A stretch of DNA of 33,789 bases from Deinococcales bacterium (lineage in GTDB: Bacteria; Deinococcota; Deinococci; Deinococcales; JAAFIG01): positions 1 to 33,789 of the forward strand of contig JAAFJQ010000014.1 in assembly GCA_013298185.1 (NCBI GenBank). Reading direction: 5' to 3'. Shown piece by piece: positions 1-33,789 of the stretch. The position numbers and the translations under genes are program-made. Below the pieces are notes generated by a model. That model did not search any database. It saw only the letters and a program-made list of their open reading frames with translations, and was not told the DNA's origin. The first letter of the stretch is position 1; the number at the start of each line of letters is the position of its first letter.

Positions 1-667
1 ACCGCGTGGTAATGACCATCCAACGAACATCTGCGCCTTCAAATCCCGGGGTTTGCACAGCGACAAAAACCGCTAAGCTGTTACCCAACAAGTGAGCGCT
101 TCGCATTTCATAAGAAAGCGCACAGGCTCGGGACTTTGGCAAGGTCAGCCCATCTTTTTGCAGCACCCGGGTTTTACCAGCCACAGTTAAAGTCAATGCC
201 AGTTGCGTGGCAATTTCATCAGGGCAAGTTTGGGCATCTTGCTTAACAAATTCACTGTTCAACTCGAGGGTATGGATGCGTCCAGCGTAGACAAAACTGC
301 TGCGTTGCCCTTGGATATTAGGCGAAGTTGGTGCAATGCCAATAAAGCGCCCTTGCAAGCCTTGGCTGATGGCATAGCGTTTATACATGGCTTGAGCGGC
401 GGCTGAAATTGCGGCTCGAGCTTGGGAAGTGGTTGAGTTTTCTGTCTCGAGCATCTTCTCGGTTTGGGATAGGACGGTGTTTTTGGCAACGTCTACGACT
501 TGGGTTTTGGCATAGGCAAAACCAGCGCCATCGGTGATACCAAATTGCTCAAAAGCCACATAGCGCCCATCTTTGGAGAACCCAATCAACTCGAGGGTGG
601 CGGCGTCACCTGCTCGAGCCAAGGAAAGAAAGAGCGCCAATGCCAACATGAGTTTCAAAAGTTTCAT
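1..667 (-). CDS. DUF2259 predicted secreted protein, C-terminus cut by window edge
   Basis: The reading frame is open from the ATG at 667 to the left edge, about 222 codons, with no stop inside the window, so the C-terminus is missing. The N-terminus MKLLKLMLALALFLSLARA is a typical signal peptide (basic, hydrophobic, small-residue cleavage site). The mature start has the DUF2259 look: a LELIGFSKDGRYVAFEQFG stretch followed by an acidic/glycine turn and a VVDVAKN segment. Family function is unknown; members are secreted or periplasmic. The start is supported by a TAGACT box 7 bases upstream and no Shine-Dalgarno sequence. Family assignment is from recalled sequence resemblance, so it is fairly but not fully certain. 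Confidence 0.75.
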   Translation of the reverse strand, partial: MKLLKLMLALALFLSLARAGDAATLELIGFSKDGRYVAFEQFGITDGAGFAYAKTQVVDVAKNTVLSQTEKMLETENSTTSQARAAISAAAQAMYKRYAISQGLQGRFIGIAPTSPNIQGQRSSFVYAGRIHTLELNSEFVKQDAQTCPDEIATQLALTLTVAGKTRVLQKDGLTLPKSRACALSYEMRSAHLLGNSLAVFVAVQTPGFEGADVRWMVITTR

Positions 668-674
668 GACCTAC

Positions 675-680
675 AGTCTA
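675..680 (-). promoter_or_regulatory. -10 box of leaderless promoter for the DUF2259 gene
   Basis: On the minus strand TAGACT ends 7 bases before the ATG at 667. A -35-like ATGACA lies about 19 bases further upstream (700-705). Confidence 0.55.
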
Positions 681-808
681 GCTCAGATTTGGAGTCAATT
701 GTCATGTTGTGTTATGCTGCTGGCGTAGCTCGCTTAGCCATCAAGGAGCCGCGTGTTCTTTGACAATCAAAATGAAAGTTCAGGACTGGACAGCCGATCA
801 AAAAGGTT

Positions 809-860
809 GACCCCACGTCCTGTGCAAAGGGCGTGGGGTCGCCTCCTATCAGAAAGGAGG
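809..860 (+). promoter_or_regulatory. Two stacked hairpins, the second hiding an extended Shine-Dalgarno
   Basis: Hairpin 1: arms 809-820 and 829-840 pair over 12 bp (one G-U wobble) around an 8-base loop. Hairpin 2: CCTCCT at 842-847 pairs with AGGAGG at 855-860. The right arm of hairpin 2 is part of AGAAAGGAGGTGATC (851-865), which complements the usual 3' end of 16S rRNA over nearly its full length. Such an RNA would keep the ribosome binding site closed until something opens it, as in several type I toxin mRNAs. The structures are seen directly; the regulatory role is inferred. Confidence 0.6.
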
Positions 861-1054
861 TGATCACTATAAACCACAAAAAGGCTATCAGAAAGCCAGT
901 GAAACTGCAAGTCAAACGCGCTAAGTCCAAACCGAAAGGCAAACAAGTCGCTAAGCAAAAAGCAGTTAAACTGAGCATCTGGGCTGCCATTGTGAGCATC
1001 ATCGCCAGCATCATCGCTAGCATTGTTGCGGTGCTGATGAGCCTGATGAAGTAA
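833..1054 (+). CDS. Small basic protein with hydrophobic C-terminus; possible type I toxin-like peptide
   Basis: The open frame from a GTG at 833 runs to TAA at 1054. The extended Shine-Dalgarno at 851-865 lies inside this frame, so the real start is probably later. The codon at the ideal distance (8 bases after GGAGG) is ATA at 869-871, which would give about 61 residues beginning (M)NHKKAIRKP. The first half is almost all Lys/Arg/Gln; the last 26 residues form a hydrophobic helix of IVS/IIAS repeats ending MSLMK. A basic end plus one membrane helix, a hidden strong binding site and no CTCGAG sites resemble a type I toxin or small membrane peptide. I do not recognise the family. If ATA replaced an ATG, the gene may be disabled. 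Confidence 0.45.
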   Translation: MGSPPIRKEVITINHKKAIRKPVKLQVKRAKSKPKGKQVAKQKAVKLSIWAAIVSIIASIIASIVAVLMSLMK

Positions 1055-1096
1055 TTTTGATTGCAAGCCAAACGAGCTACACCTAAGTACCTCCCT

Positions 1097-1129
1097 GAAA
1101 TGTTTTAGCGTTTTTTGCTAAAACATTTC
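1097..1129. terminator. Perfect 13-bp hairpin with T-rich loop
   Basis: GAAATGTTTTAGC at 1097-1109 and its exact reverse complement at 1117-1129 flank a 7-base loop G plus six T. It follows the small ORF by 42 bases. There is no T-run after the stem, so it may be a weak terminator or another RNA structure. Confidence 0.45.
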
Positions 1130-1152
1130 CGACCAACGGGAGTAAGGACAGC

Positions 1153-1217
1153 GTATCTACCGCTGTAATGGTAGAATTGCCGCTTTTTGAAAATTCTAAA
1201 ATGAAAGCGGTAGATAC
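1153..1217. repeat. 65-bp element with 12-bp perfect terminal inverted repeats
   Basis: GTATCTACCGCT at 1153-1164 is exactly inverted at 1206-1217. A second nested inverted repeat, TAGAATT at 1172-1178 and AATTCTA at 1192-1198, lies inside. It begins 6 bases past the stop of the acyl-CoA dehydrogenase on the minus strand. It could be that gene's transcript end, a small structured RNA, or a tiny non-autonomous element; nothing in it codes for protein. Confidence 0.45.
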
Positions 1218-1223
1218 TTAGTT

Positions 1224-2390
1224 TTACTCGAGTGCATTCAAACCCGTTAAATCCCGTCCAACAATCAGGGTATGAATATCATGCGTGCCTTCGTAAGTGT
1301 CCACCGTCTCGAGGTTGAGCATGTGGCGAATGATTGGGTATTCGGTGGTGATACCATTCCCCCCATGCAGTTCCCTTGCCAACCGCGCTCCTTGCAGTGC
1401 TACTCGGACATTGTTACGCTTTGCCATAGACACTTGGGCGTAGTTCATTGTGCCGCCGTCTTTGTGTTCGCCAAGGCGTTTTGCCATCAGCAGCCCCAGC
1501 GAGTGCTGGGTTGCCATCCATGTCAGTTTGTCCTGCACCAATTGACGGCTGGCGATGGGTTTTCCAAAAGTCGTGCGGGTTTTGGTGTACTCGAGGGTTT
1601 CGGTGAACACCGCCTCGAGCGCCCCAAGTGCGCCCCATGCAATGCCGTACCGAGCTTGGGTCAGGCAGCCAAGTGGTGATTTTAAGCCACCAGATTTGGG
1701 CAGCAGGTTTTCTAATGGAATGCGGCAATCCTCGAGAACAATTTCGCCTGTAATGCTGGCTCGCAAGCTTTGTTTGTTCTTGATTTTTGGGGTGCTGAAA
1801 CCTGTAGCTTCGCGTGGCACAATAAAGCCGCGTATCATATCCACACCGTTTTCCTCGAGTTTCGCCCAGACCACGGCTAAATCAGCGATGGGGCTGTTGG
1901 TGATCCACATTTTCGAGCCGTTCAGGACATATGAATCGCCGTCTTTGACTGCTCTGGTTCGCATTGCGGCGGGGTCAGAGCCTCCATCGGATTCGGTCAA
2001 GCCAAAGCAGCCAATGGTTTTACCCGTGGCAAGGTCTGGCAGGTATTTTTTTCGTTGTTCTTCCGAGCCATACGCATAAATTGGGTACATCACCAAACTG
2101 CCTTGGACACTGGCACTCGAGCGGACACCAGAATCGGCTCGCTCGAGTTCATAGCAAATTAAGCCATACGCGGTACTCGAGATGCCTGCCCCACCGTACT
2201 CTTCGGGGGTGGTGGGTCCTAAAAAACCAAGGCTACCCATTTTGGTTATCAGTTCTCGAGGCAGTGTACCTTCGTCCCACCAACCAGCCACATGAGGAAT
2301 GATTTCTTTGTCGACAAAATCCCGTGCCAGTGCATGAATGTCTTTTTCTTCGGGCGACAAGGTGTCTAAGGCTTTGAAGTAATCGAACAT
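1224..2390 (-). CDS. Acyl-CoA dehydrogenase, glutaryl-CoA dehydrogenase-like
   Basis: A flavoenzyme that oxidises an acyl-CoA to the enoyl-CoA with FAD, probably in the cytoplasm. The 388-residue protein has the full family fold: helical N-terminal domain, the GCFGLTESDGGSDP FAD/substrate strand, the KMWITNSPIADLAVVWAK segment and the YTKTRTTFGKPIASRQLVQ helix. The C-terminal NLETVDTYEGTHDIHTLIVGR contains the catalytic Glu in the TYEGTHDIH context typical of glutaryl-CoA dehydrogenases, so lysine/tryptophan degradation is a reasonable guess. Substrate is not provable here. The frame is open to an earlier ATG at 2426, but family alignment begins at MFDYFKALD. No other beta-oxidation gene is adjacent; it is divergent from the permease operon. 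Confidence 0.88.
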   Translation of the reverse strand: MFDYFKALDTLSPEEKDIHALARDFVDKEIIPHVAGWWDEGTLPRELITKMGSLGFLGPTTPEEYGGAGISSTAYGLICYELERADSGVRSSASVQGSLVMYPIYAYGSEEQRKKYLPDLATGKTIGCFGLTESDGGSDPAAMRTRAVKDGDSYVLNGSKMWITNSPIADLAVVWAKLEENGVDMIRGFIVPREATGFSTPKIKNKQSLRASITGEIVLEDCRIPLENLLPKSGGLKSPLGCLTQARYGIAWGALGALEAVFTETLEYTKTRTTFGKPIASRQLVQDKLTWMATQHSLGLLMAKRLGEHKDGGTMNYAQVSMAKRNNVRVALQGARLARELHGGNGITTEYPIIRHMLNLETVDTYEGTHDIHTLIVGRDLTGLNALE

Positions 2391-2473
2391 GGATTTATTT
2401 TGACATATCCCCCAAAGGACAAACATGACACAACTCGAGTAGCAATAAGACTTTTTACTCCTCTCTTTGGCGT

Positions 2474-2479
2474 TAGACT
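2474..2479 (+). promoter_or_regulatory. -10 box of leaderless promoter for the permease operon
   Basis: TAGACT lies 7 bases before the ATG at 2487, with no ribosome binding site between. It also argues for this start over an in-frame ATG at 2400. Confidence 0.6.
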
Positions 2480-3664: not shown

Positions 3665-4339
3665 ATGATTATTTTACAAGCAACCGATATTTCCAAAGTT
3701 TACCCAAGCGGCGAAAGCAGCGTCACCGCGCTGAATCATTTATCCATTGGTTTTGAAGCGGGCAAAATTACGGCAATTGTTGGACCTTCGGGCAGTGGTA
3801 AAAGCACCTTGCTGAATTTACTGGCGGGTTTTGATCGTCCCTCGAGTGGTTCGGTTTCGCACCAAGGCATTGATATTACTGGAATGCCTGAAACCAACTT
3901 AGCGAGTTACCGCTTGGCGCATTTTGGTTTTATTTTCCAGAATTATAATTTGGTCAGCATCCTCAATGCCCAAGAAAATGTTGAATTACCGCTTTCTTTG
4001 GCAAGTGTTCCCAAAGCCAAGCGCAACAGCATCTCGAGTGAAATCCTGAAACGGGTTGGGTTAGGCAAACGCACCACCCATTACCCGAATCAGTTATCGG
4101 GCGGCGAGCAGCAGCGAGTGGCAATTGCTCGAGCGCTTGCCACCAACCCCAGTGTCTTGTTTGCTGATGAACCCACAGGAAATTTGGACACCACCACGGG
4201 AACAGGCATCCTCGAGTTACTGACCGAACCAATGGAAGGCAGCCAAAACCGCACATTAATTCTGATTACGCACGATATGGAAGTGGCGGCTCGAGCCAAT
4301 CAAATTGTGCGAATCCGTGACGGGAAGCTCGAGGCATGA
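3665..4339 (+). CDS. ABC transporter ATPase, LolD/MacB type
   Basis: The 224-residue energy unit for the upstream permease. Walker A GPSGSGKST is at 40-48, the Q-loop is in GFIFQNYNL, the signature is LSGGEQQRVAIARAL, Walker B is SVLFADEPTGNLD and the switch His is in LILITHD. The GNLD after Walker B and short length are typical of the LolD/MacB/FtsE group. It starts 2 bases after the permease stop, and its stop overlaps the next start as ATGA, so all three genes are probably one transcript. Confidence 0.9.
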   Translation: MIILQATDISKVYPSGESSVTALNHLSIGFEAGKITAIVGPSGSGKSTLLNLLAGFDRPSSGSVSHQGIDITGMPETNLASYRLAHFGFIFQNYNLVSILNAQENVELPLSLASVPKAKRNSISSEILKRVGLGKRTTHYPNQLSGGEQQRVAIARALATNPSVLFADEPTGNLDTTTGTGILELLTEPMEGSQNRTLILITHDMEVAARANQIVRIRDGKLEA

Positions 4340-5391
4340 CCATGAACGGAATCCGCCAAGCCCTGCGCGATGCGCCAGATTATCCTTTTGTGCCGCTTGA
4401 AGCGCCGATTAAGCTCGATCAGAATGAATCGGGGTATGATTTTCCGCTTTCGTTAAAACAAATCGCCCTCGAGAAGATGCTGCACACCAATTGGAATCGT
4501 TATCCAGATATTCATGCCAATACTTTGCAGCAAAAAATCGCAGCTCGAGTTGGCTGGGTGCAGCACGGTGTGGTGGTCACACCGGGCAGCAATGTCTTGA
4601 TTCATGCTTTGGCACAAGCGGCTGGACTTGGGCAACGGATGCTGAGTGTCTCACCAGCTTTTAGCTTGTATAGCTTGTCGGGCAAACTCTTGGGTGCTGA
4701 GATGCTCGAGCCAGCTTTGAATTCAGATTTTTCTTTGCCAATGGATGATTTACTTGCCACCCTCGAGCAGTACACTCCGGGCGTGTGTTTTCTGGCTGTT
4801 CCACATGCGCCAACTGGCGCAATGCCGAGTCTGGAGCAAATTGAAACCTTGGTTCATCGGGCTTCAAAAGATTGGGTGATGGTGCTGGACGAAGCCTATT
4901 TTGAGTACAGTCAGCGTTCGCATTTGCACTTGCTCGAGCAGCACCCCAATGTGTGTATCCTCAGAACCTTCTCGAAGGCATGGGGCTTAGGCGGGGTACG
5001 ACTTGGTTATTTGCTTGCCCAACCAGAATTAGCTGTGAACATCCAAAAAATACTTAGTCCATTCAATGTTTCTTCACTCATCGTAGCAGCAGCCGAAACT
5101 GCTCTCGAGCATCCAAACTATGCCGAAACTCGAGTTCAGGAAACCATCCTTGAGCGCCAAAGGGTCTTTGCTGCCCTTCAAAACCACCCAACGTGGAAGG
5201 TTTACCCAAGCGCTGCCAATTATCATTTAATTCGCACCCAAGATGCCAAACGCGCCCATGCCGAACTGCTCGAGCGTGGCATTCTGGTGCGAAAACAAGA
5301 CAGTTATTTGGGTCTAAACGGCTGCATTCGGGTTTCAATTGGCACACCCGAAGAAAACAATGCGTTTGTGAAAGCAGCTCTCGAGCTTTGA
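4336..5391 (+). CDS. hisC: Histidinol-phosphate aminotransferase-like class I/II aminotransferase
   Basis: A PLP-dependent aminotransferase of 351 residues, probably converting imidazole acetol phosphate to histidinol phosphate, or a related step. The N-terminal KLDQNESGYDFP matches HisC (family LNANENP). VMVLDEAYFEY carries the PLP-contacting Asp185 and Tyr, Lys214 in RTFSKAWGLGG is the Schiff-base lysine, and VRLGY and the C-terminal CIRVSIGTPEEN arginine are present. Odd point: the usual NPNNPTG loop reads VPHAPTG, so the Asn that normally contacts the PLP ring hydroxyl is Ala. Other his genes are absent and its partner is a transporter operon, so a different keto acid substrate is possible. 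ATG at 4336 overlaps the ATPase stop; a second ATG follows at 4342. Confidence 0.8.
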   Translation: MTMNGIRQALRDAPDYPFVPLEAPIKLDQNESGYDFPLSLKQIALEKMLHTNWNRYPDIHANTLQQKIAARVGWVQHGVVVTPGSNVLIHALAQAAGLGQRMLSVSPAFSLYSLSGKLLGAEMLEPALNSDFSLPMDDLLATLEQYTPGVCFLAVPHAPTGAMPSLEQIETLVHRASKDWVMVLDEAYFEYSQRSHLHLLEQHPNVCILRTFSKAWGLGGVRLGYLLAQPELAVNIQKILSPFNVSSLIVAAAETALEHPNYAETRVQETILERQRVFAALQNHPTWKVYPSAANYHLIRTQDAKRAHAELLERGILVRKQDSYLGLNGCIRVSIGTPEENNAFVKAALEL

Positions 5392-11438: not shown

Positions 11439-12392
11439 ATGTCGTTGGATTCATTTGAACAATATGATTTGGATAGCCTGAACTTGGCTCGAGCGCTCGA
11501 GGGATTACCGCACAGTTACGATGGGGCAACCCGTGCTTTACCCGCGCCTTTTGGGGTGATTGGCTTTGGTGAGGGGGCTTTGGCAGCTGAACTCTCGAGG
11601 GTGTTTATTGATGAGGCAGCGGTGTCTGGTTCTGGTACGCAATTTGTTTTGGCGGGTGGCTTTGATTTTGGCGCGGTGGATGCCGCCTGTGTAATTGCCG
11701 AAGCGGCAGGTGCAAAAGTCTTCCGCATGGGTTTGCCTCGAGCCAGTGTGGTCAATATCTCGGATGATGAGTTGTCGTATTCTTTTGAGGACAATCCCGA
11801 CGAAGAACCTCGAGATGATTTTTTTCCTGTGCCGCACGGTAGTTTTAGCACCTACACTTATGCCCAAGCCCTAGCGTACCTGACCAACCACATTGACCTT
11901 GCCGAAGCCGCCGATGAAACGCTGGCGAAACTGCGTGAGCAGTGCAAAACCGAAATTGAAACAGCGCAAAATCCAGCTAAGCAACTGGCATGGAGTCTTT
12001 GGACTCGCACCCCGCTTCTGATTCCCTCGAGTGGCTTTGCGATTCAGGCGTGGGCATGGCAGTTAAACCTATCAAAACTCGGCAAATCCCTGAGCATCCC
12101 GATTGCTCATAACAGCCTCGAGATTGTCGCCAGTGGCTTTGAAGCCCGCCATGAAAGCGGCGATGCACTGGTGGCATTGCTGCTTGGTGGCTCGGACGAA
12201 GGCTTAGACTTGGCTCGAGAAATCCTCGAGACTCGAGTGGACGAAGTGATTGAAGTGCCAGCCGCTGCCAATGAAGCTTACGCTGCCAATTTGGGTTTGT
12301 GGTACTTGTCGTGTTGGGTTGGGTTGTACTTGGCTTTGCTGTACAAAATTGACCCTCGAGATTCCAAGCCACTCGAGGCACTGCGAAAATGA
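11439..12392 (+). CDS. SIS-domain protein, phosphoglucose/phosphomannose isomerase-like
   Basis: A 317-residue cytoplasmic protein that resembles the small bifunctional phosphoglucose/phosphomannose isomerases. Features are a glycine-rich early segment FGVIGFGEGALAAEL, a central SYSFEDN stretch, and a second SIS-like half with LIPSSGFAIQAWAWQLNLSKLGK and PIAHNSLEIVASG, where His/Asn/Glu sit as in the family active site (NHNE-like). The C-terminal LGLWYLSCWVGLYLALLYKIDP matches the family tail. The sequence is divergent, so isomerase activity is an inference. Its stop overlaps the start of the HtrA-like gene by ATGA, so both are made together. Confidence 0.65.
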   Translation: MSLDSFEQYDLDSLNLARALEGLPHSYDGATRALPAPFGVIGFGEGALAAELSRVFIDEAAVSGSGTQFVLAGGFDFGAVDAACVIAEAAGAKVFRMGLPRASVVNISDDELSYSFEDNPDEEPRDDFFPVPHGSFSTYTYAQALAYLTNHIDLAEAADETLAKLREQCKTEIETAQNPAKQLAWSLWTRTPLLIPSSGFAIQAWAWQLNLSKLGKSLSIPIAHNSLEIVASGFEARHESGDALVALLLGGSDEGLDLAREILETRVDEVIEVPAAANEAYAANLGLWYLSCWVGLYLALLYKIDPRDSKPLEALRK

Positions 12393-13351
12393 AAGTTTTG
12401 CCATGGATGCTGGCTGTCGTGCTTGCGGCTATGGCAGGTTTTTTGTACGGCACAAGCAATACACCAAAAACCACCGACGCTGTTCCACTCGAGGCAATGC
12501 TGAGCAAAGCTGTGGCTGCCACGGTCTCGGTTCGCACCGATATTGCTGACCTCTCTGACCCGAATATGCGCGGCTCGGGTTCAGCTTTTCACATCGGCGA
12601 TGGTGTTTACATCACCGCAGCTCATGTGGTGGATGGAGGCACAAAAATTTATCTTGACCCGCGCAGCCGAACTGTTAAGCATTTACTGGGTGTTACCGAA
12701 GCCAAACTGATTGGCAAGGTGGATGAATTTGATTTGGCTGTCTTGCGCGGTGCAGTGATTCCCGAGAAACTTGCGTGGGCTGAAACCCCAGCCCTAATTG
12801 GCTCGGGTGTCTACGCCATTGGCAACCCATTTGCTCGAGCGCCGCGCAGTGTCACGGCGGGGATTGTCTCGGGTTTAGATCGGCTTCAACAAACCCCCAA
12901 AGGTGCATTGGCGGGCTTGGTGCAATTTGATGCACAGGTCAACCCGGGTAACTCGGGCGGCGCATTGGTCAACAATCGTGGTCAGGTCTTGGGCATTGTC
13001 TCGAGTATCCTCTCGCCAACAGGCTCAAGCGCAGGTGTGGGCTTTGCCATTTCCACAAATCTAATCAAAAGTAAAGTCGAAGCTATGCTGCGCGGTGAAA
13101 AAATTGTGTTCCCAAGTTTGGGAGTCTCGAGTCAGGACGATGGTGCAATTTTACAAACTGTGCAACCCGGTGGTTTAGCTGCTGCGGCTGGGCTACAAGC
13201 AGGCGATGAAATCCTCGAGATTGCGGGGTTGCCCGTGGAAACCCTGTCTGAAATCAATGCTGTGGTTTTAGTCGCCAAAAGCGGCTCGAATTTAGCCATC
13301 AAAGCCAAGCGCTCTGGTGCAACTCGAGATTTTAGTCTTCGGATTCCGTAG
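12389..13351 (+). CDS. HtrA/DegP-like trypsin-type serine protease with one PDZ domain
   Basis: A 320-residue envelope protease. The N-terminal helix (4-20) is a membrane anchor or signal peptide. The trypsin-like domain shows the full triad: His79 in ITAAHVVD, Asp115 in EFDLAVLRG and Ser189 in NPGNSGGAL. A single PDZ domain (about 232-318) contains QPGGLAAAAGLQAGDEIL. It likely removes damaged proteins outside the cytoplasmic membrane. Translation is probably coupled to the SIS gene through a 4-base overlap, and two more genes follow closely. Regulation beyond that coupling is not visible. Confidence 0.92.
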   Translation: MKVLPWMLAVVLAAMAGFLYGTSNTPKTTDAVPLEAMLSKAVAATVSVRTDIADLSDPNMRGSGSAFHIGDGVYITAAHVVDGGTKIYLDPRSRTVKHLLGVTEAKLIGKVDEFDLAVLRGAVIPEKLAWAETPALIGSGVYAIGNPFARAPRSVTAGIVSGLDRLQQTPKGALAGLVQFDAQVNPGNSGGALVNNRGQVLGIVSSILSPTGSSAGVGFAISTNLIKSKVEAMLRGEKIVFPSLGVSSQDDGAILQTVQPGGLAAAAGLQAGDEILEIAGLPVETLSEINAVVLVAKSGSNLAIKAKRSGATRDFSLRIP

Positions 13352-13361
13352 CAAGGCATTG

Positions 13362-13367
13362 TAAAAT
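13362..13367 (+). promoter_or_regulatory. -10 box before the coiled-coil gene
   Basis: TAAAAT lies 5 bases before the ATG at 13373 in the 21-base gap after the protease gene, so this gene and miaA may have an extra leaderless start. Confidence 0.45.
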
Positions 13368-13372
13368 CTCTT

Positions 13373-13678
13373 ATGACCGAATCTGAAATCAATGCTTTAA
13401 TCGAACAAAAACTCGAGCCGCTACGCGCTGAGATTGGTGTGCTGCGCCAAAAACTGGGGCTGTCTGAACCTAGCCAAGCGCCTGAAGCCGTCTCGAGTGT
13501 AGAAGAAACCTCGAGCGAAGAAGTTCCTACAGAAATCTCGAGCGCCGCGCCGCCCGAACGCGCCGACTTTCAGCGTTTCTTGCAGCGTGGTCTCGAGCAG
13601 GAACAACGCGAGTACACCGAAGAAGCCTTGGAAGCCAAGCCTCAACCAAAAAAGGGCTGGAATCCGTTCCGCCGATGA
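13373..13678 (+). CDS. Small acidic coiled-coil protein of unknown function
   Basis: A 101-residue soluble protein I do not recognise. Residues 1-30 form a short amphipathic helix (EIEALIEQKL-type heptads with Leu spacing), 31-60 are a disordered Ser/Glu/Pro stretch, and 61-85 form a second charged helix. The tail GWNPFRR is basic and aromatic. It lies between the HtrA-like protease and miaA, overlapping the miaA start by ATGA. Co-translation with miaA is likely; a functional link is not shown. Confidence 0.75.
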   Translation: MTESEINALIEQKLEPLRAEIGVLRQKLGLSEPSQAPEAVSSVEETSSEEVPTEISSAAPPERADFQRFLQRGLEQEQREYTEEALEAKPQPKKGWNPFRR

Positions 13679-14595
13679 ACGCCATTCCCGTTTTATGTGG
13701 TGTGACCGCCAGTGGCAAAACAGCTTTGTCGCTGGAATTAGCTAAGCACCACCCGCTCGAGGTTGTGTCTGCCGATGCAATGATGGTGTACCAGCAAATG
13801 GACATTGGCACCGCCAAACCCAGTTTGCTCGAGCGCCAGCAAGTGCCGCATCACCTGATTGATTTGTTAGCCCCCAACCAAGATTTTTCGGTGGCAGCGT
13901 GGGTTAAAGCGGCTGAAACTGCGATTGCCGAAATTCTAGCTCGAGGCAACATCCCTTTGGTGGTTGGTGGCACTGGTTTTTATATTCGAGCGCTTTCACA
14001 GGGTTTGCCCAGCACCCCAATCTCGAATTTAGCGGCAATGCAACGCTTAGAAGTAGAACTCAAAGCCCAAGGACTCGATGCCATGCTTGCCGAACTCGAG
14101 GCGGTCAGTCCCACCGATGCTCAAAAAACCCAACGCAACCCAAGACGGGTTTTACGGGCGCTCGAGATTCTGCGCGGCACAGGTCAACCCCCCTCGAGTT
14201 TTACTCCAATCCCACCCAAGTACAGCTTCTTCAAAGTTGCCCTGATTCCCGATTCCACAATCCTCGAGCCGCGCATTGCCCAGCGTACCAAATGGATGCT
14301 CGAGTCGGGTTTGCTCGAGGAAACCCGACAACTACTCGAGGTTTTTTCCAGAGATGGTCGTCGAGCCACCAGTTTCCAAGCCATTGGGTATAAACAAGCC
14401 CTCGATCACCTGCTTGGCACAACCGACGCAGTAGGAAATCATGTCAGCATCTCGCTCGAGGAAACTGAGCGACGCATCAACTTAGCCACGCGACAATATG
14501 CCAAGCGCCAAAGCACATGGTTTAAGGCAGAACCCAATGCCCATGTGGTGACGAATCTCGAGCAAGCGGGGGAGCTATTAGCTTCTAGCTTCTAG
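13675..14595 (+). CDS. miaA: tRNA dimethylallyltransferase
   Basis: The enzyme adds a dimethylallyl group to N6 of A37 in tRNAs that read UNN codons. The 306-residue protein has the P-loop GVTASGKTAL (9-18), SADAMMVYQQMDIGTAKP with the catalytic Asp, VPHHLID, and GGTGFYIRALSQGL. The zinc-free insertion and QRNPRRVLRALEIL helix follow, then the C-terminal INLATRQYAKRQSTWF motif. The start overlaps the previous gene by ATGA. The last residues LASSF and the stop are encoded by TAGCTTC-type heptamer repeats, so the C-terminus has been reshaped by the repeat array. The call is secure. Confidence 0.96.
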   Translation: MNAIPVLCGVTASGKTALSLELAKHHPLEVVSADAMMVYQQMDIGTAKPSLLERQQVPHHLIDLLAPNQDFSVAAWVKAAETAIAEILARGNIPLVVGGTGFYIRALSQGLPSTPISNLAAMQRLEVELKAQGLDAMLAELEAVSPTDAQKTQRNPRRVLRALEILRGTGQPPSSFTPIPPKYSFFKVALIPDSTILEPRIAQRTKWMLESGLLEETRQLLEVFSRDGRRATSFQAIGYKQALDHLLGTTDAVGNHVSISLEETERRINLATRQYAKRQSTWFKAEPNAHVVTNLEQAGELLASSF

Positions 14596-14597
14596 CT
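14573..14597. repeat. Heptamer repeat forming the 3' end of miaA
   Basis: GAGCTAT, TAGCTTC, TAGCTTC and TAGCTCT follow each other in 7-base steps across the miaA stop codon. It belongs to the same family as the arrays near 5390 and 19375. Confidence 0.65.
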
Positions 14598-14849
14598 CTT
14601 AAAGCATTGCGTAAGGTACGTTTTTGCTGTGCATGAGGTGGGCAAAGCCCACGCTACCTCTCCAAAGAGATTCTTGGTTTTGCCTTCGACCTTCGACTTT
14701 TGCCTTTCCTCTTTTTTCTTTTCTCTTTCCTCCCAAACCTTCGGTTAGGTCATTCCCAGATTGTTTGGTGGAAGGCAAAAACCTTTCTTCTAGCTATCCT
14801 TTATGGCATTACTGGGCGCGGTTGCCCAAGTCATCAAAGGAGCTTTTGT
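14596..14849. other. Non-coding, pyrimidine-rich stretch between miaA and the DUF4388 gene
   Basis: This 254-bp gap has no supported gene. It holds a REP-like hairpin at 14635-14660, a C/T-rich tract at 14694-14742 made largely of CTTTTGCC and CTCTTT variants, and no CTCGAG site. A promoter for the next gene is presumably near its right end, but I see no clear box. Confidence 0.6.
14635..14660. repeat. REP-like palindrome GTGGGC-AAA-GCCCAC
   Basis: GTGGGC (14638-14643) and GCCCAC (14647-14652) pair around AAA, with outer arms GAGGT and ACCTC and a 3-base bulge. It resembles the GGGTGGGC/GCCCACC palindromes scattered between genes in many bacteria. Confidence 0.5.
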
Positions 14850-15428
14850 ATGTCCAAGCAAACGGTCATCACCTCGGGTTACTTAGAAGGCATTCTGGAA
14901 CACTTAGGCGGGATGGGAACGTTCATGGCGTACTTAATTGAATCGCAAAGCACCGGCATTCTCGAGGTTGGCGGCGCGAAGCTGCATCTCGAGTGCGGGA
15001 TAATCACGCATCTCGAGCATGAGCGCTTGTTTGGCATGACTGCCGCTTTAGATGTGGCGCAACGTCAAACAGGGCATTTTAAGTTTGTGAAATCAGCCGT
15101 GGTTCAACACACCACGTTCCTCAATGCCAATGCGGTGCTGCTCGAGGCGATGCGTTTACTGGATGAGCGCCAGAATAAATACCTCGAGATGGTTGTGCCA
15201 GATATTGAATCTGCCATGATTTGCGCTCAGGGTCTTGCACCGCTCGTGATTTGGTCGGTCTATGAAACTGATTATCAACATCAAAAAACCACGATTATGG
15301 CGCTTGATGGTATGAAAATCATCATTCTCTCGGGCAACCTCGGTCAAGTTCGTAAGCACTTACTGCGGGCTGGTTTTACTCAAGACTTGCCGCAAAAAAC
15401 CAGACAAGCGAATCTGCCACGCGCCTAG
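14850..15428 (+). CDS. DUF4388 domain protein
   Basis: A 192-residue protein. Residues 10-115 match the DUF4388 domain: an opening LEGILEHLGG helix, a SQSTGILEV segment, an AKLHLECGIITHLE strand pair and a later DVAQRQTGHFKF stretch. The domain is common in Deinococcota, Myxococcota and cyanobacteria, often with signalling or GTPase-regulating proteins. The C-terminal 75 residues have no recognised domain. AAAGGAG (14836-14842) lies at good distance from the ATG at 14850; the frame is open further upstream only through low-complexity DNA. The biochemical role is unknown. Confidence 0.8.
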   Translation: MSKQTVITSGYLEGILEHLGGMGTFMAYLIESQSTGILEVGGAKLHLECGIITHLEHERLFGMTAALDVAQRQTGHFKFVKSAVVQHTTFLNANAVLLEAMRLLDERQNKYLEMVVPDIESAMICAQGLAPLVIWSVYETDYQHQKTTIMALDGMKIIILSGNLGQVRKHLLRAGFTQDLPQKTRQANLPRA

Positions 15429-15437
15429 AAAATCGCG

Positions 15438-15443
15438 TAAAAT
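15438..15443 (+). promoter_or_regulatory. -10 box of leaderless promoter for the GT4 gene
   Basis: TAAAAT lies 6 bases before the ATG at 15450. Confidence 0.55.
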
Positions 15444-15449
15444 TGGGGC

Positions 15450-16766
15450 ATGTTGTCCGTTAAACGCCCACTTCGGGTTGCGCTTTTCACCGATACCTAT
15501 ACGCCTCAGATCAATGGGGTGGTGACCAGTGTGGTCAATCTCAAACGTGGTCTCGAGGAAATGGGTCATGTGGTGACGATTGTTGCGCCTAAGCACCCGC
15601 AGCAAATCCCCGAAGCCAATGTGATTCGGATTCGTTCGACCACATATCGTCCGCAGCCCGAGCAGCGTTATGCTTTCCCACCGAGTTTACGAAAAATCCT
15701 CGAGTTTAGGATGCGCCGCTTTGATGTTATTCATACACATGGCGTGGTGATGCCACTGATTGGCTTGGGTATTGGGCGTTTACTTGGTGTGCCAGTGGTG
15801 ATGACGTACCACACCCGAATTCGAGATTATGTGCATTACGCGCCGTTTTATGCCAGCATGTCATGGTTACTCAACGACAAGCGTTGGTATGTGCGTGGTT
15901 CTAAAACCCGTACCAGTGTCTCGCGCAGTTTGGTCAGCAGCTTGGAGCATCGCACCCAAGTTTTGGCGGCTCGGGTGGATCAGTGGCTGTGTAATCGCAA
16001 CCTCGAGATTATTACGCCAGCCGCGCCGATGGCAGATGAACTTGTGGAAATGGGTGTGCAGAGTCCAATCAGTGTTGTGCCGAACGGAATTAACTTGGAA
16101 TTGCTGAGTCAACCACGTCAAGACCCATTTCCACAGTACCGCGCTCCTCAAAACGCCAAGCGTTTGCTGCATGTTTCGAGGGTGGGGAAAGAAAAATCCA
16201 TTGATTTGCTGCTCGAGCGTTTTTTCATCATCCATAAAGCCATGCCAGACACGCATTTGTTTATTGTGGGGGATGGTCCTGAGCGCAAGAACTTAGAAGC
16301 CTACACCAAGCAACTTGGTCTGGAAGAAGCTGTGACCTTCACGGGGTATGTGGCGAACACCGATGTTGGCGCGTATTATCAGCACGCGCATTTGTTTGTT
16401 TTTGCCAGCACATCTGAAACTCAAGGCATGGTCGCACTCGAAGCCAATGCTTGTGGTTGCCCAGTGATTGCTCGAGCTGAGATGGGGATTATTTCTTGTG
16501 TCTTGGATGGAAAAACAGGGTATCTGATTGACCCATCCGACGCAGAAACCTACGCTCAAAAAGCCCTCGAGTTGCTGCAAAACGAACCCAAGCGCCTCGA
16601 GTTCGCGGCGGCAGCCAAAGCCTTTGCTTTTGTGGAGGGTTCGCACACCACCATGACCAAACGCATTCTCGAGGTCTACGAACGCGCCATTGGCACAAAT
16701 AAGGGTTGGGCGGATTTGAGTTTAACCGAAGCGGTCAGTACGGTTCGTAAGGAACTCATTTCCTAA
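15450..16766 (+). CDS. GT4-family glycosyltransferase
   Basis: A 438-residue GT-B enzyme that likely transfers a sugar from a nucleotide donor to a lipid or glycan at the inner membrane face. The N-terminal half has FTDTYTPQINGVVTS (acceptor side, typical of diacylglycerol/phosphatidylinositol glycosyltransferases), DVIHTHGVVMPL and TYHTRIRDYVHY. The C-terminal half has VPNGINLE, LLHVSRVGKEKSIDLLL, FIVGDGPE and the E-x7-E motif SETQGMVALEA. It resembles MgtA-like and alpha-glucosyl-diacylglycerol synthases, so glycolipid synthesis is a fair guess. Its last 45 bases overlap the convergent phosphotransferase gene. Donor and acceptor cannot be told from sequence. Confidence 0.87.
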   Translation: MLSVKRPLRVALFTDTYTPQINGVVTSVVNLKRGLEEMGHVVTIVAPKHPQQIPEANVIRIRSTTYRPQPEQRYAFPPSLRKILEFRMRRFDVIHTHGVVMPLIGLGIGRLLGVPVVMTYHTRIRDYVHYAPFYASMSWLLNDKRWYVRGSKTRTSVSRSLVSSLEHRTQVLAARVDQWLCNRNLEIITPAAPMADELVEMGVQSPISVVPNGINLELLSQPRQDPFPQYRAPQNAKRLLHVSRVGKEKSIDLLLERFFIIHKAMPDTHLFIVGDGPERKNLEAYTKQLGLEEAVTFTGYVANTDVGAYYQHAHLFVFASTSETQGMVALEANACGCPVIARAEMGIISCVLDGKTGYLIDPSDAETYAQKALELLQNEPKRLEFAAAAKAFAFVEGSHTTMTKRILEVYERAIGTNKGWADLSLTEAVSTVRKELIS

Positions 16767-26619: not shown

Positions 26620-27467
26620 CAGTCACCTGCCATGGCAAGGTTGCCTGGTTTGGCTTCGTTATCGGCTTTGGTTTTCTCCAAAGCAATAAAGTAAATCAGT
26701 GTGCCGAAACCAGCCTTGGCGATCATATCGGCTAAGCTATAACCCACTTGCAAAGCCACCACACCATCTGCCGAGAAGCTACCGAACACCAGTGGCATCA
26801 GGTAAGCAATGGGGTAAAAACCCCATGAGGCAAACAGCAACAAACGCAGGTTCTTCATCAAGAGTTGCACTCGAGGTGGCTGACGATCAAGTGACTTGCC
26901 AAGTTCGACAAACAAAGTGTAGATGATGTACACAAACGGAATGGTGCTGAGTGTACCCCACAACAAACGTGTGCCAGTATCCAAGGAGATTTCGCCAGGG
27001 TAGCCCAGAACAATCATGGCAAGCGCAGCAACAACCAAGCGCCCAATCATGCCCGAAGCCACGTTGCTTGCCAATGCCAAAACCGCTACGGCTTCAACCA
27101 GCAACAACGGCACGGTCAAAACCCAGTCGGCATAGCGGTACGCATCGTTGAACGGCAACCCAGAGGCTTTGTAAACCCCGTCTACAAAAGTATAGGCTTC
27201 GCTCCATGAACCAGAGATACGAAAGTAGTGATAACACGCCACTGCCACCACCAACGCCGAGACAAGCATCGCAGGTTGATACTTCACCCCAAGGTTTTGC
27301 TTGCCCAGCACAAAGAAAATAAACGATGCCCCCATCGTCGCAATGGTGATCGAGAACAACTGATACACCAAACCAAACTGTCCTGAACTGAGTTCAGTCG
27401 GCGCAGCCAAAGCTGCACTTCCAAAAAGAACTGCTCCGAGTAGTGCTGGCACGAACAACTTTTTCAT
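26619..27467 (-). CDS. Xanthorhodopsin-type light-driven proton pump
   Basis: A seven-helix retinal protein of 282 residues that should pump protons outward in light. A signal-peptide-like N-terminus (1-22) precedes the helices. Helix C reads RYADWVLTVPLLLVE: counterion Asp114, Thr118 and proton donor Glu125 (the DTE set of outward pumps); Leu122 at the proteorhodopsin 105 position suggests green absorption. His80 matches the xanthorhodopsin counterion partner, and Lys251 in DMIAKAGFG binds retinal. Gly171 in LLWGTLSTIPF matches xanthorhodopsin Gly156, which leaves room for a carotenoid antenna. Alignment to Salinibacter xanthorhodopsin is close throughout. No retinal or carotenoid synthesis gene lies in the window. 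Confidence 0.96.
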   Translation of the reverse strand: MKKLFVPALLGAVLFGSAALAAPTELSSGQFGLVYQLFSITIATMGASFIFFVLGKQNLGVKYQPAMLVSALVVAVACYHYFRISGSWSEAYTFVDGVYKASGLPFNDAYRYADWVLTVPLLLVEAVAVLALASNVASGMIGRLVVAALAMIVLGYPGEISLDTGTRLLWGTLSTIPFVYIIYTLFVELGKSLDRQPPRVQLLMKNLRLLLFASWGFYPIAYLMPLVFGSFSADGVVALQVGYSLADMIAKAGFGTLIYFIALEKTKADNEAKPGNLAMAGD

Positions 27468-27473
27468 AAATAA

Positions 27474-27478
27474 CCCCC
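27474..27478 (-). promoter_or_regulatory. Shine-Dalgarno of the rhodopsin gene
   Basis: GGGGG on the minus strand lies 6 bases before the ATG at 27467. The rhodopsin mRNA is therefore leadered, unlike many neighbours. The 250-bp region upstream is shared with the divergent DUF177 gene and holds the small inverted repeat AATCC-TCAC-GGATT (27512-27525). Confidence 0.6.
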
Positions 27479-27705
27479 TAAAACATCAAGCCAAGACCAC
27501 ACGCTAAACCGTAATCCTCACGGATTCCAGCCGTCCAGCGCGTGCATGTCAGATGCTCCCTGACCTTACAGCCCTTGTACCAGTTTTCACAGTCCGTGTT
27601 CCTACGTTTGAATGTACTTGCACCGAGTGATTGAAATGTAGGTCAGCACGAAGGTTCAAACGCGCCATCTGCCATTTCGCGCATTTCAAAAGACATGAAT
27701 TCGTG

Positions 27706-27711
27706 TAGACT
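27706..27711 (+). promoter_or_regulatory. -10 box of leaderless promoter for the DUF177 gene
   Basis: TAGACT lies 6 bases before the GTG at 27718, supporting a leaderless GTG start. Confidence 0.55.
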
Positions 27712-27717
27712 AAACGG

Positions 27718-28305
27718 GTGAATGAAGTACCCAGTTTGAATTTAGTCAAAATTTTACGCGGTGGCGGCGATGTCTCCGACCAAGGCAAAACCAACTTGCT
27801 CGAGTACAGCGTCGAAACCACCCACGGCTTAGAAGTTGTCACCTTGCCACTGCACGGCACGGCCCAATGGCGAGCCATTGCCTCGCACATCGGCGAACAG
27901 GAATTCTGGTTGGCTGGGACAATCGAAGCCACCCTGAACTTAGAATGCGGACGTTGCCTTGACCCAGTCACGCACAGCATGGAAGCTCGGCTCGAGAGTT
28001 TGCTGCGCTTTGACCCGAACGCCAAAACCCCAAAGCGCACCCTAACCGACGATGACGAAGAAGTGATTCTCTTTGGCGAGCCAAACGTCAACTTAACCGC
28101 GCTGTTTGCAGAAGCCATCAGCCTCGAGATTCCCGCCATGGTCAAATGCCGCGCTAATTGTAAAGGACTGTGTGCCAGTTGCGGCATGAACCTGAACAAC
28201 ACCTCAGCTTGCAAAGAAGCTCGAGCCGACTGCCCGAGTTTTGGCGTGCAAGAGACAAAGAAAGAAAATCCGTTTGCTGTATTAAAAGATTTGTTTAAGG
28301 ATTAA
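27718..28305 (+). CDS. YceD/DUF177 family protein
   Basis: A 195-residue protein of the YceD family, linked to 23S rRNA accumulation and usually encoded just before the ribosomal protein L32 gene rpmF. It shows ATLNLECGRCLDPVTHSMEA, the acidic DDDEEVILFG loop, ISLEIPAMVKC and the Cys cluster CRANCKGLCASCGMNLN, probably binding zinc. Unlike the usual arrangement no rpmF follows; the next gene is convergent arsC, and the two stop codons overlap. The start is GTG with a -10 box 6 bases upstream. Confidence 0.87.
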   Translation: MNEVPSLNLVKILRGGGDVSDQGKTNLLEYSVETTHGLEVVTLPLHGTAQWRAIASHIGEQEFWLAGTIEATLNLECGRCLDPVTHSMEARLESLLRFDPNAKTPKRTLTDDDEEVILFGEPNVNLTALFAEAISLEIPAMVKCRANCKGLCASCGMNLNNTSACKEARADCPSFGVQETKKENPFAVLKDLFKD

Positions 28306-31463: not shown

Positions 31464-31464
31464 G

Positions 31465-31734
31465 TTAATAAGCAAAAAAACCTGTTAAACCAGTGGCATC
31501 CGCCCATTGCACCTCGAGCGAATCCACAAGGGCATGGGTTGAACCTTTTTTGAGAAAATGCAGCAAATGCTCCAAATCGGATTTTTCGCCTTCGGCAACT
31601 ACTTCGACCCGACCATCGGCTAGATTTTCGGCATAGCCCGTTAAGCGCAGAATCTCGGCTTGGCGTTGTACAAAGCGCCGATAACCAACACCTTGAACTG
31701 TGCCGGACACCAAAACCGTTAAGCGTAAAAGCAT
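31465..31734 (-). CDS. acyP: Acylphosphatase
   Basis: An 89-residue enzyme that hydrolyses acyl phosphates such as acetyl or carbamoyl phosphate. The phosphate loop [12 protein letters not shown] contains catalytic Arg19, and the second catalytic residue Asn37 is in [17 protein letters not shown]; spacing and length fit the family exactly. The ATG comes directly after the stop of the GNAT gene, and the next gene starts one base after its stop, so it lies inside a tight operon. The C-terminus is less conserved (GLTGFFAY). Confidence 0.92.
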
Positions 31735-32166: not shown

Positions 32167-32179
32167 TCCGTTCCATAGT

Positions 32180-33007
32180 TTACACTTTTGGCAACAAGTG
32201 TGGTGTGTTTGCTGTCACACCAGACAAAGCATCAATCTCGAGGTGCTGCATCTGCCCATCCACACCACCAATCACATTGGCAGTGTGCTGATACGATTGA
32301 ATATCGCCTGTAATAAAATGCTGAATCGTACCAAATTGCTGCTTTGAACTGCCTAAATTCTGAGACTCGAGTTCTCGAGCCACCACATTGGCAGTGGCAA
32401 AAGCACTGTCCACCACTTGAATCGTATCACCCAAATGCGCCGCAATTGCACTTTTGAGAACTGGATAATGGGTGCAACCCAAAATCAGGGCATCCATGTT
32501 CTTGGGGCGCGTCTGCAAATAATGCTCAATTAAAAGCTGCGCCTCTTTCTCATCAGCTAAGCCTTCTTCGACCAACGGTGCAAGCATTGGGCAACTCTGC
32601 GCCCAGACTTCATGCCCTCGAGCCTCGAGCCGAGATTGATACGCCCCACTGGCAATTGTGCCTCGGGTGGCAAGCACACCAACCACCCCACCGTTGCTGG
32701 CAGCGCTGGCAGCCAATACACCGGGTTCGATCACACCAAGCATTGGCACGGACGCACTGCTAAAATCAGCGCAAGTGCTGGCGGTGTTACAAGCAATCAC
32801 AATCAGTTTTGCGCCCATAGACTCGAGAAACGCCGCGTTCTCGGCGGCAAAGTGGCGAATCATTTCGCGGGGTTTACGACCATAGGGAAAACGAGCTGTA
32901 TCGGCTAAGTAAATAAAATCTTCAAAAGGCAAAAGTTCACGCATGGCACGCAGCACAGTTAAACCACCCACGCCAGAATCAAACACACCAATCGGAGAAG
33001 ACCTCAT
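32180..33007 (-). CDS. murI: Glutamate racemase
   Basis: Converts L-glutamate to D-glutamate for peptidoglycan. The 275-residue protein has VFDSGVGGLTVL (5-20), YLADTARFPYGRKP, the first catalytic Cys73 in IACNTAS and the second Cys178 in LGCTHYPVL. The C-terminal 50 residues (after ITGDIQSY) are an unusual extension with no known motif. It is first in the murI-GNAT-acyP operon; the ATG has a TAGAAT box 9 bases upstream and shares the control region with the alkyltransferase-like gene. Confidence 0.95.
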   Translation of the reverse strand: MRSSPIGVFDSGVGGLTVLRAMRELLPFEDFIYLADTARFPYGRKPREMIRHFAAENAAFLESMGAKLIVIACNTASTCADFSSASVPMLGVIEPGVLAASAASNGGVVGVLATRGTIASGAYQSRLEARGHEVWAQSCPMLAPLVEEGLADEKEAQLLIEHYLQTRPKNMDALILGCTHYPVLKSAIAAHLGDTIQVVDSAFATANVVARELESQNLGSSKQQFGTIQHFITGDIQSYQHTANVIGGVDGQMQHLEIDALSGVTANTPHLLPKV

Positions 33008-33016
33008 GCGGCGTGA

Positions 33017-33022
33017 ATTCTA
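33017..33022 (-). promoter_or_regulatory. -10 box of likely leaderless promoter for murI
   Basis: TAGAAT on the minus strand ends 9 bases before the ATG at 33007. Confidence 0.45.
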
Positions 33023-33049
33023 CGCTGTTCCATGAGAGAATAAAAAGCC

Positions 33050-33376
33050 ATGAAACTCGAGGCAGATTTTAGACAAAAAGTACTGACATTGATTCTGCAA
33101 ATTCCCAAAGGACGGGTCAGCACCTACGGCGCAGTGGCGCTGATGGCTGGTTATCCACGTCGCGCCAGACACGTTGGGCATTTGCTGCGCGGGATTTCAG
33201 AAGAAACCGCCCATGACATCCCATGGCAGCGGGTGGTCAACTCGAGTGGGCAGTTGTCCACCTATAAAATAGGCACAGGCGATTTGCAGCGTGTACTGCT
33301 CGAGGCTGAGGGGATTGTGTTCTCGAAAACTGGGAGGCTTGACTTAAAACGGCTCGAGTGGTGGGCAGAAAAATGA
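33050..33376 (+). CDS. Alkyltransferase-like (ATL) DNA repair protein
   Basis: A 108-residue relative of O6-alkylguanine-DNA methyltransferase. The DNA-binding part is intact: PKGRVSTYGAVALMAGYPRRARHVGHLL (helix-turn-helix and Arg finger). The active-site PCHRV of true methyltransferases reads PWQRVV, with Trp59 in place of the acceptor Cys, as in ATL proteins, so it cannot take the alkyl group. ATL proteins bind O6-alkylguanine and hand it to nucleotide excision repair. The gene is divergent from murI and converges on greA. His is also replaced (PWQ instead of PWH). Confidence 0.88.
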   Translation: MKLEADFRQKVLTLILQIPKGRVSTYGAVALMAGYPRRARHVGHLLRGISEETAHDIPWQRVVNSSGQLSTYKIGTGDLQRVLLEAEGIVFSKTGRLDLKRLEWWAEK

Positions 33377-33397
33377 GCTGAGATCACCGCGAAAATT

Positions 33398-33458
33398 CTC
33401 GAGAACCCTTCAAGCCCGAACCTCGAGAACCGTTCAAGCCCGAATCTCGAGAACCTTG
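33398..33458. repeat. 24-bp tandem repeat duplicating the 3' end of greA
   Basis: Copies at 33398-33421 and 33422-33445 and a 13-base partial at 33446-33458 begin CTCGAGAACC. The rightmost part encodes the last residues VLEIRA of greA and its stop; the copy on the left repeats the VLE-x-RA-stop sequence once more past the gene, with VLE alone at the far end. Confidence 0.8.
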
Positions 33459-33789
33459 TATTTCAGTTGCCCCTTTGCGCCTTCAACCACAAAAACCTCG
33501 TTTTTCTTGCGTCCAAAGAGCTTTTGTCCAAGCGGGCTATCATCGGAGACCTTGCGGATGCTGCCACCCGGAACGCTGGCTTCTGCGCCAGACACCAGTT
33601 GGACTTCGATTTCCTTACCGCTTTTTTCTTCTTTGAGTTTAATCACCGTGCCAAAACCAATGGCTTTACCGCCTTCTGCGCCCTCGAGAACCACAGCACG
33701 GGTCAGGGTATCCTCGAGTTCATCAATGCGGGTTTCGATGTTCATTTTCTCGCGTTTGGCTTCTTCTAAACCAGAACCGTCGTAATCAT
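33434..33789 (-). CDS. greA: Transcription elongation factor GreA/GreB family, N-terminus outside window
   Basis: The 3' part of a GreA-type factor, which helps stalled RNA polymerase cut back its transcript. The frame enters at the right edge with DYDGSGLEEAKREK and continues into IETRIDELEDTLTRA, the end of the N-terminal coiled coil. The C-terminal FKBP-like domain follows: GFGTVIKLKEEKSGKEIEVQLV, and then DDSPLGQKLFGRKKNEVFVV. About 118 of an expected 155-160 residues are present. The 3' end lies in a tandem repeat. Confidence 0.93.
   Translation of the reverse strand, partial: DYDGSGLEEAKREKMNIETRIDELEDTLTRAVVLEGAEGGKAIGFGTVIKLKEEKSGKEIEVQLVSGAEASVPGGSIRKVSDDSPLGQKLFGRKKNEVFVVEGAKGQLKYKVLEIRA

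What the first reader, a model, noticed from the sequence alone, without database searches (positions are those of the whole stretch)
244..33720. CTCGAG behaves as a HIP1-like highly iterated palindrome
About 230 CTCGAG sites in 33.8 kb is near 28 times the chance level. The motif is used in all three reading frames and on both gene orientations, so amino acid or codon choice cannot explain it; selection or biased repair must act on the DNA itself. The closest known case is HIP1 (GCGATCGC) in cyanobacteria, whose cause is still debated. A solitary methyltransferase acting on CTCGAG or its TCGA core, or a chromosome-organising protein, are possible readers. I know of no described CTCGAG version, but could not search.
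Basis: partly seen in the sequence, partly recalled or inferred. Interest (0 to 1): 0.88.

Follow-up and report, generated by a model that had tools for sequence, protein, structure and literature searches.

The report
CTCGAG palindrome saturates Deinococcales genomes
In an uncultured family of bacteria related to Deinococcus and Thermus, the six-letter DNA word CTCGAG occurs every ~165 bases, about 25 times more often than chance; it is kept in place across genera and even biases which amino acids the proteins contain, so something unknown acts on the DNA word itself.

Summary
The window holds 231 CTCGAG (8.4 expected); the genome (4.41 Mb, a Deinococcales MAG) holds 26,619, one per 166 bp, and only 4 of the reversed control GAGCTC. 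All four genomes of the family (three genera) have about 27,000-28,000. HIP1 densities tabulated by Elhai are 300-2700/Mb; this is 6,000/Mb.

The pressure acts on DNA. Enrichment over synonymous resampling is 10-17x in all three frames, and intergenic density is similar. CTCGAG encodes 70% of Leu-Glu pairs (about 2% expected), and Leu-Glu itself is 2.2-2.5x over-used (1.1x in a relative without the motif). Sites keep their positions between genera (48-60%; other hexamers 14-18%). Occupancy ignores distance to the next site except below ~15-24 bp. One-mismatch sites are not enriched. Other palindromic hexamers are strongly avoided.

The methyltransferase reading is not supported but not excluded: no methyltransferase ortholog common to the four family genomes was found. 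Best reading: a new, extreme HIP-class motif kept by a per-site pressure, most likely weak selection for an unidentified 6-bp-specific binding protein. A milder parallel occurs in Natrialbaceae haloarchaea.

The parts
263..33718 (.). 231 exact CTCGAG sites, the whole set dispersed through coding and intergenic DNA; the motif is exactly 6 bp and palindromic, so it has no strand
   Evidence: count; first and last site, gaps; no preferred palindromic extension
12001..15000 (.). densest 3 kb of the window: 32 CTCGAG sites
26870..27804 (.). longest interval between neighbouring sites in the window (929 bp from start to start)
4336..5391 (+). example gene carrying the motif like all others: histidinol-phosphate transaminase (hisC); ordinary housekeeping context
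   Evidence: TIGR01141 above cut-off
13675..14595 (+). example gene: miaA, tRNA dimethylallyltransferase; inside the densest stretch
   Evidence: TIGR00174 above cut-off

Best explanation
CTCGAG is the highly iterated palindrome of an uncultured Deinococcales family and of part of a second family. SHOWN: a directional pressure of nearly the same strength acts on every possible 6-bp site, whatever the frame, gene or position. It is strong enough to set codon choice at 30-74% of all opportunities and to create extra Leu-Glu pairs. It needs the complete hexamer (one-mismatch sites gain nothing), takes no account of how many sites are nearby, and weakens only when another site lies within about 15-24 bp. 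INFERRED: the site is the target of an abundant protein with a sharp 6-bp specificity and a footprint of some 12-20 bp, for example a nucleoid or a repair/recombination protein, and each occupied site gives a tiny additive benefit. If the log odds of 3.0-4.6 are read as a scaled coefficient at equilibrium, the effect per site is only a few times 1/Ne. Protein and benefit are not identified, and the same statistics would arise if the protein instead caused a local, per-site repair bias toward CTCGAG.
For: Uniform log odds of 3.0-4.6 in three frames and five genomes. Position-level conservation 60%, 59% and 48% against 18%, 17% and 14% for other hexamers. In ortholog pairs with Leu-Glu kept, CTCGAG is kept 77/110 while CTC alone is kept 15/103 and GAG alone 31/102. 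Leu-Glu occupancy is 0.62-0.72 at all distances from 15 to over 480 bp from the next site but 0.32 below 15 bp. Pair counts are 0.35-0.55 of expectation at 6-14 bp and 1.0 from 24 bp on; generic inverted repeats show no such dip from 9 bp up. No graded enrichment of one-mismatch sites. Leu-Glu excess of 2.2-2.5x. Present in all four genomes of the family.
Against: No protein was identified. Near-matches are not enriched at all, which is sharper than most non-enzymatic DNA-binding proteins. Pairs 7 and 14 bp apart are not excluded, which a simple footprint does not predict. G007, in family f2, has lost the motif altogether (683 sites in 2.3 Mb), so the function would have to be dispensable. A local repair or conversion bias fits the same numbers.
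Confidence: 0.38

Rival explanations
1. Methylation-linked ratchet, as Elhai proposed for HIP1 and alternate HIPs: a CTCGAG-specific methyltransferase marks the motif, and mismatch repair guided by that mark keeps mutations that create it.
For: In cyanobacteria every genome with a HIP has a predicted MTase for it (PMC4390886). The genomes are rich in MTases. Sharp all-or-none 6-bp recognition is enzyme-like. A CTCGAG orphan MTase is known in Nocardia (PMC4752239). An Eco57I-class MTase beside a broken XhoI gene in G108 has a 48% identical relative in G024, a motif-rich genome without a detected XhoI gene.
Against: No MTase ortholog in all four f1 genomes among the listed hits of five families. 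The Eco57I_C-type MTase shared by most g12 genomes is absent from G000-G002 and from f2. No excess of C-to-T decay at the inner cytosine compared with the outer one, so no 5mC signature there. Elhai's model predicts saturation near one site per kb; here it is 6 per kb with no density dependence.
Confidence: 0.27
2. Uptake-driven molecular drive: CTCGAG is a self-DNA uptake or recombination tag, and DNA carrying it replaces DNA lacking it.
For: The pressure is the same at silent, coding and intergenic sites, as a drive would give. Relatives such as Thermus are naturally competent (general knowledge). Strong avoidance of all other palindromes suggests frequent exposure to restriction during DNA exchange.
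Against: Uptake sequences are longer and non-palindromic, with graded over-representation of mismatched forms (PMC1939737); here one-mismatch forms are not enriched. A drive acting on fragments should saturate at about one site per fragment, but occupancy does not fall when other sites are near, above 15-30 bp.
Confidence: 0.1
3. Selfish or defensive restriction-modification: a XhoI-like nuclease with its methyltransferase favours the site.
For: XhoI-family nucleases do occur in the phylum (G012-G014, broken in G108).
Against: No XhoI-family hit in G000-G007. Within genus g8 the three genomes with XhoI have fewer sites (695-974/Mb) than the three without (1,655-1,966/Mb); small sample, kinship and G+C not corrected. 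The genomes show the usual avoidance for other restriction sites.
Confidence: 0.03
4. Codon usage or amino-acid composition, or a repeated element carrying the motif.
For: Frame 0 (Leu-Glu) is the commonest frame, 794 of 1306 coding sites.
Against: Resampling with the genome's own, already inflated, codon usage gives 10-17x too few sites in every frame. Intergenic density equals coding density. Leu-Glu excess goes with the motif while Glu-Leu is normal. Flanks are diverse.
Confidence: 0.01

Closest known systems
HIP1 (GCGATCGC) of cyanobacteria
   Same: Short palindrome grossly over-represented genome-wide in coding and non-coding DNA; graded and occasionally lost among relatives.
   Different: Other sequence, other phylum, 6 bp instead of 8; about 6,000/Mb against 300-2700/Mb (PMC4390886); no shared methyltransferase found; deviations are even over the motif instead of concentrated at the outer positions; CGATCG, the core of HIP1, is nearly absent here (1 in 248 kb).
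Alternate HIPs (GGCGCC in Calothrix PCC 7103, GGGATCCC, rCCGGy, GCsGC)
   Same: A non-HIP1 palindrome takes the HIP role; GGCGCC is also a hexamer.
   Different: Those are sporadic in single genomes or sister strains and each comes with a predicted MTase; CTCGAG is clade-wide over three genera of one family plus part of a second, with no shared MTase found; it is 67% G+C and much denser.
CTCGAG orphan methyltransferase of Nocardia (Blow et al. 2016)
   Same: Same motif, a reader outside restriction.
   Different: There the motif clusters between dnaA and a replication gene (PMC4752239); here it is everywhere, with near-exponential spacing.
DNA uptake sequences (USS/DUS)
   Same: Genome-wide over-represented oligomers explained by molecular drive.
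   Different: Longer, non-palindromic, with graded mismatch enrichment (PMC1939737), none of which holds here.

Membership tests
HIP class (Elhai 2015) | Short palindrome over-represented far above other oligomers, genome-wide | tested here: met
   25-27x by base composition; next palindromic hexamer 2.5-2.9x; whole-genome count 26,619
HIP class (Elhai 2015) | Dispersed in coding and non-coding DNA, independent of reading frame | tested here: met
HIP class (Elhai 2015) | A methyltransferase for the motif is present in every genome that has it | tested here: inconclusive
   No common ortholog in five MTase families; specificities of the many other MTases cannot be read from sequence here
HIP class (Elhai 2015) | Density of about 0.3-2.7 per kb, near one per kb at saturation | tested here: not met
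   6.0 per kb in the genome; occupancy does not depend on density. This is a typical value of known cases, not a strict definition
HIP1 proper | Sequence GCGATCGC in a cyanobacterium | tested here: not met
   CGATCG 1 copy in 248 kb; Deinococcales record titles
HIP1 proper | Deviations concentrated at the first and last positions | tested here: not met
   One-transition neighbours 1.11, 1.13 and 1.15 at the three positions of the half-site in G000
DNA uptake sequence | Graded over-representation of mismatched forms | tested here: not met
   One-mismatch forms at 0.04-1.15 in G000; feature from PMC1939737
DNA uptake sequence | Preferential uptake of DNA carrying it | not testable with these tools
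   needs transformation assays
XhoI/PaeR7I restriction-modification site | Cognate XhoI-family nuclease in the genome | tested here: not met
   PF04555 absent from G000-G007
Chi site | Non-palindromic, strand-oriented recombination signal | tested here: not met
   The motif is a perfect palindrome and so has no orientation; no strand-breaking flank was seen

The most novel reading that the evidence does not exclude
A hexamer-specific DNA-binding protein that is not a methyltransferase has sites along these chromosomes every ~165 bp on average. Per-site selection for its binding has filled most of the synonymous capacity and measurably rewritten the proteome (extra Leu-Glu and related peptides) over at least family-level time, and a milder version arose independently in Natrialbaceae archaea.
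Probability: 0.3. Interest if true: 0.92.

Novelty: new variant of a known kind. Interest (0 to 1): 0.8.

Why it matters
The cause of HIP1 has been open since 1995. This is an independent HIP in another phylum, more than twice as dense as the top of the HIP1 range tabulated by Elhai, and graded from none to near saturation among relatives that include cultured genera such as Calidithermus. That makes the methylation, uptake and binding hypotheses testable. The measured properties (uniform log odds, no density dependence, a 15-24 bp exclusion zone, no graded mismatch enrichment) constrain any mechanism. It also shows a DNA-motif pressure strong enough to alter protein sequences genome-wide, which matters for codon-usage and selection tests.

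Tried and rejected
(1) A first impression of one shared Eco57I-class MTase across the phylum: G000:C254 turned out to sit beside a BsuBI/PstI-type nuclease, and the MTase shared by most g12 genomes is absent from G000-G002 and f2. (2) A conserved D12 adenine methylase of about 365 aa in g11/g12: only 25-33% identical relatives in G000 and G001, none in G002 or G003. (3) Hairpin avoidance as the cause of short-range exclusion: rejected with generic inverted repeats as control. (4) The loose three-motif pattern in viral contigs gave many hits in G+C-rich contigs with little excess. (5) Several genome-survey hits (Agrococcus, the JAUIBR01 bin, Porphyromonas) are codon, repeat or local effects: whole-genome counts or frame tests are weak. 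(7) Searches for a prior CTCGAG report found none in the open-access library. (8) No RNA family matches in the window.
Full report
What was checked. The window has 231 CTCGAG where 8.4 are expected. The genome it comes from (G000, 4,408,500 bp, 94.6% complete) has 26,619, and 4 of GAGCTC, the reversed control. The family (G000-G003, three genera) has 26,619, 27,159, 28,178 and 27,118 CTCGAG, with 4-15 GAGCTC. In the pattern survey of public genomes the motif-richest record titles read 'Deinococcales bacterium'. The MAG titles carry different isolate series, so a single assembly artefact is unlikely.

Distribution. Elhai gives 300-2700/Mb for HIP1.

DNA, not protein or codon, is the target. With amino acids fixed and codons redrawn from the genome's own usage, G000 should have 82.5, 21.7 and 14.3 sites in frames 0/1/2; it has 794, 270 and 242. 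Intergenic density is 5.7/kb (G000), 8.0 (G001), 6.7 (G002) and 11.6 (G003). Genes here are simple non-overlapping ORFs, so small errors are expected. CTCGAG encodes 716/1027 Leu-Glu pairs, 240/473 of [SPTA]-Arg-[VADEG] and 225/560 of X-Ser-[SR] in G000, where background codon use predicts 2.3%, 2.8% and 1.8%. Log odds are 4.60, 3.58 and 3.62 there and 3.0-4.6 in the other motif-rich genomes; 1.8-2.3 in G004, 1.5-2.6 in G024, 1.6-2.5 in Natrialbaceae; -0.6 (frame 0, no sites in the other frames) in G007. The pressure also changes proteins: Leu-Glu is 2.17-2.46 times its expectation in the five motif-rich genomes and 2.07 in G004, but 1.11 in G007 and 1.15 in the f5 sample, while Glu-Leu stays at 0.96-1.05 in the motif-rich genomes.

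Maintenance. In DNA alignments 67/111 sites of G000 are intact at the same position in G001 (74% identity), 19/32 in G002 and 19/40 in G003; other hexamers are intact in 18%, 17% and 14% (binomial P 6e-23 for G001). In codon alignments of orthologs with Leu-Glu kept, CTCGAG is kept 77/110, while CTC not before GAG is kept 15/103 and GAG not after CTC 31/102 (Fisher P 6e-17 for CTC). Part of this is high equilibrium occupancy rather than memory of a place: Leu-Glu that is not CTCGAG in G000 is CTCGAG in G001 in 13/31 cases.

Shape of the pressure. One-mismatch neighbours are not enriched (transitions about 1.1x at each position, most transversions well below 1), so recognition is all-or-none over six bases and even across positions. 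TCGA outside the motif is at 0.58 of expectation. Spacing is close to exponential (CV 0.99). Leu-Glu occupancy is 0.62-0.72 at every distance from 15 bp to over 480 bp from the next site but 0.32 below 15 bp. Pair counts are 0.35-0.55 of expectation at 6-14 bp and return to 1.0 at 24 bp. Generic 6-bp inverted repeats show no such dip from 9 bp up, so hairpin avoidance does not explain it. Pairs exactly 7 and 14 bp apart are exceptions (1.08 and 0.99) and remain unexplained.

Palindrome avoidance. In the same genomes the other 63 palindromic hexamers have median O/E 0.10 (G000) and 0.19 (G001); nine have no copy in 248 kb of G000. Over 11 samples avoidance and motif strength rise together (Spearman -0.75, P 0.007; kinship not corrected).

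Readers. PF01555, PF00145, PF07669, PF02384 and PF02086 were searched in all 111 genomes, and the listed hits of f1 and f2 were fetched and clustered; hits below the listing limit of the tool were not seen. No cluster holds all four f1 genomes. Partial sharing exists: a C5-MTase in G000/G001/G006 (59-74% identity), a 1030-aa Eco57I/N6_Mtase protein in G002/G003 (72%), and D12 enzymes in G002/G006 (72%) and G002/G003 (58%). XhoI-family nucleases occur only in G012-G014 and, broken, in G108. In genus g8 the three XhoI genomes have 695-974 sites/Mb and the three without 1,655-1,966/Mb, the opposite of what a nuclease-driven enrichment needs. These results weaken but do not exclude a methyltransferase: unrelated enzymes may share a specificity, and the f1 genomes are 91-95% complete.

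A second lineage. Natrialbaceae haloarchaea (G111-G117: Halostagnicola, Natronolimnohabitans, Halobiforma, Halopiger, Natronococcus, Natrarchaeobius) carry 11,600-16,400 sites in 3.2-4.7 Mb with 600-2,800 GAGCTC. Enrichment beyond synonymous expectation is 1.6-2.4x in frame 0 and 7-30x in frame 1, and 1-6x in frame 2, on few sites; Leu-Glu is 2.08x. The 8 kb loci were chosen by the pattern, so they are biased upward; the whole-genome counts come from the same genomes and are not local.

Judgement. This is a HIP-class motif in another phylum, with a new sequence, higher density and measurable effects on proteins. What maintains it is open. The lack of density dependence and of graded mismatch enrichment argues against uptake drive and against range-limited mismatch repair; a local per-site mechanism is required, either weak additive selection for a bound protein or a site-specific repair bias. 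I lean to the former at about 0.38.

Noticed in passing
window 1083-1221 (about 30 copies in G000; more in G001 and G002): An interspersed intergenic repeat of about 140 bp with two strong hairpins (fold z-score -6.6, no Rfam family); it contains no CTCGAG itself and is shared across genera of the family.
   Followed up: partly
G000 and G001 genome samples (L379-L398): Nearly all other palindromic hexamers are strongly avoided (median O/E 0.10 and 0.19; GAGCTC, CTGCAG, CCGCGG and others at zero in 248 kb of G000). Avoidance tracks motif strength across relatives.
   Followed up: partly
L290, L251, L282, L257, L318, L334, L307, L320, L339, L351 (genomes G111-G117): Natrialbaceae haloarchaea also over-use CTCGAG at DNA level, with Leu-Glu excess: a milder, apparently convergent case in Archaea.
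   Followed up: partly
L229 (record G126, 110 kb), L144 (G128), L218 (G130), L240 (G127): IMG/VR viral contigs with about 3 CTCGAG per kb and 0-1 GAGCTC per record; possibly viruses of motif-rich hosts that have taken on the motif.
   Followed up: partly
L328 (QHCF01000072.1, binned as Acidimicrobiales): A 3.3 kb stretch with 24 CTCGAG and no GAGCTC in a genome bin with only 1017 sites in 2.3 Mb: probably a foreign or mis-binned contig.
   Followed up: no
L065, L066 (G004:C11): MTase-bearing stretches with only 0.7-1.0 sites/kb in a genome averaging 3.6/kb: recently acquired islands that lack the motif. Motif density could date or flag imports.
   Followed up: no
family f1 samples, all loci used: CTCGAG pairs are excluded at 8-13 bp but not at exactly 7 and 14 bp (1.08 and 0.99 of expectation); unexplained.
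   Followed up: partly
L057 342-2779 (G000:C254): A BsuBI/PstI-type restriction-modification pair (nuclease PF06616/PF17728 with an Eco57I-class MTase), matching the complete absence of CTGCAG in the 248 kb sample.
   Followed up: yes
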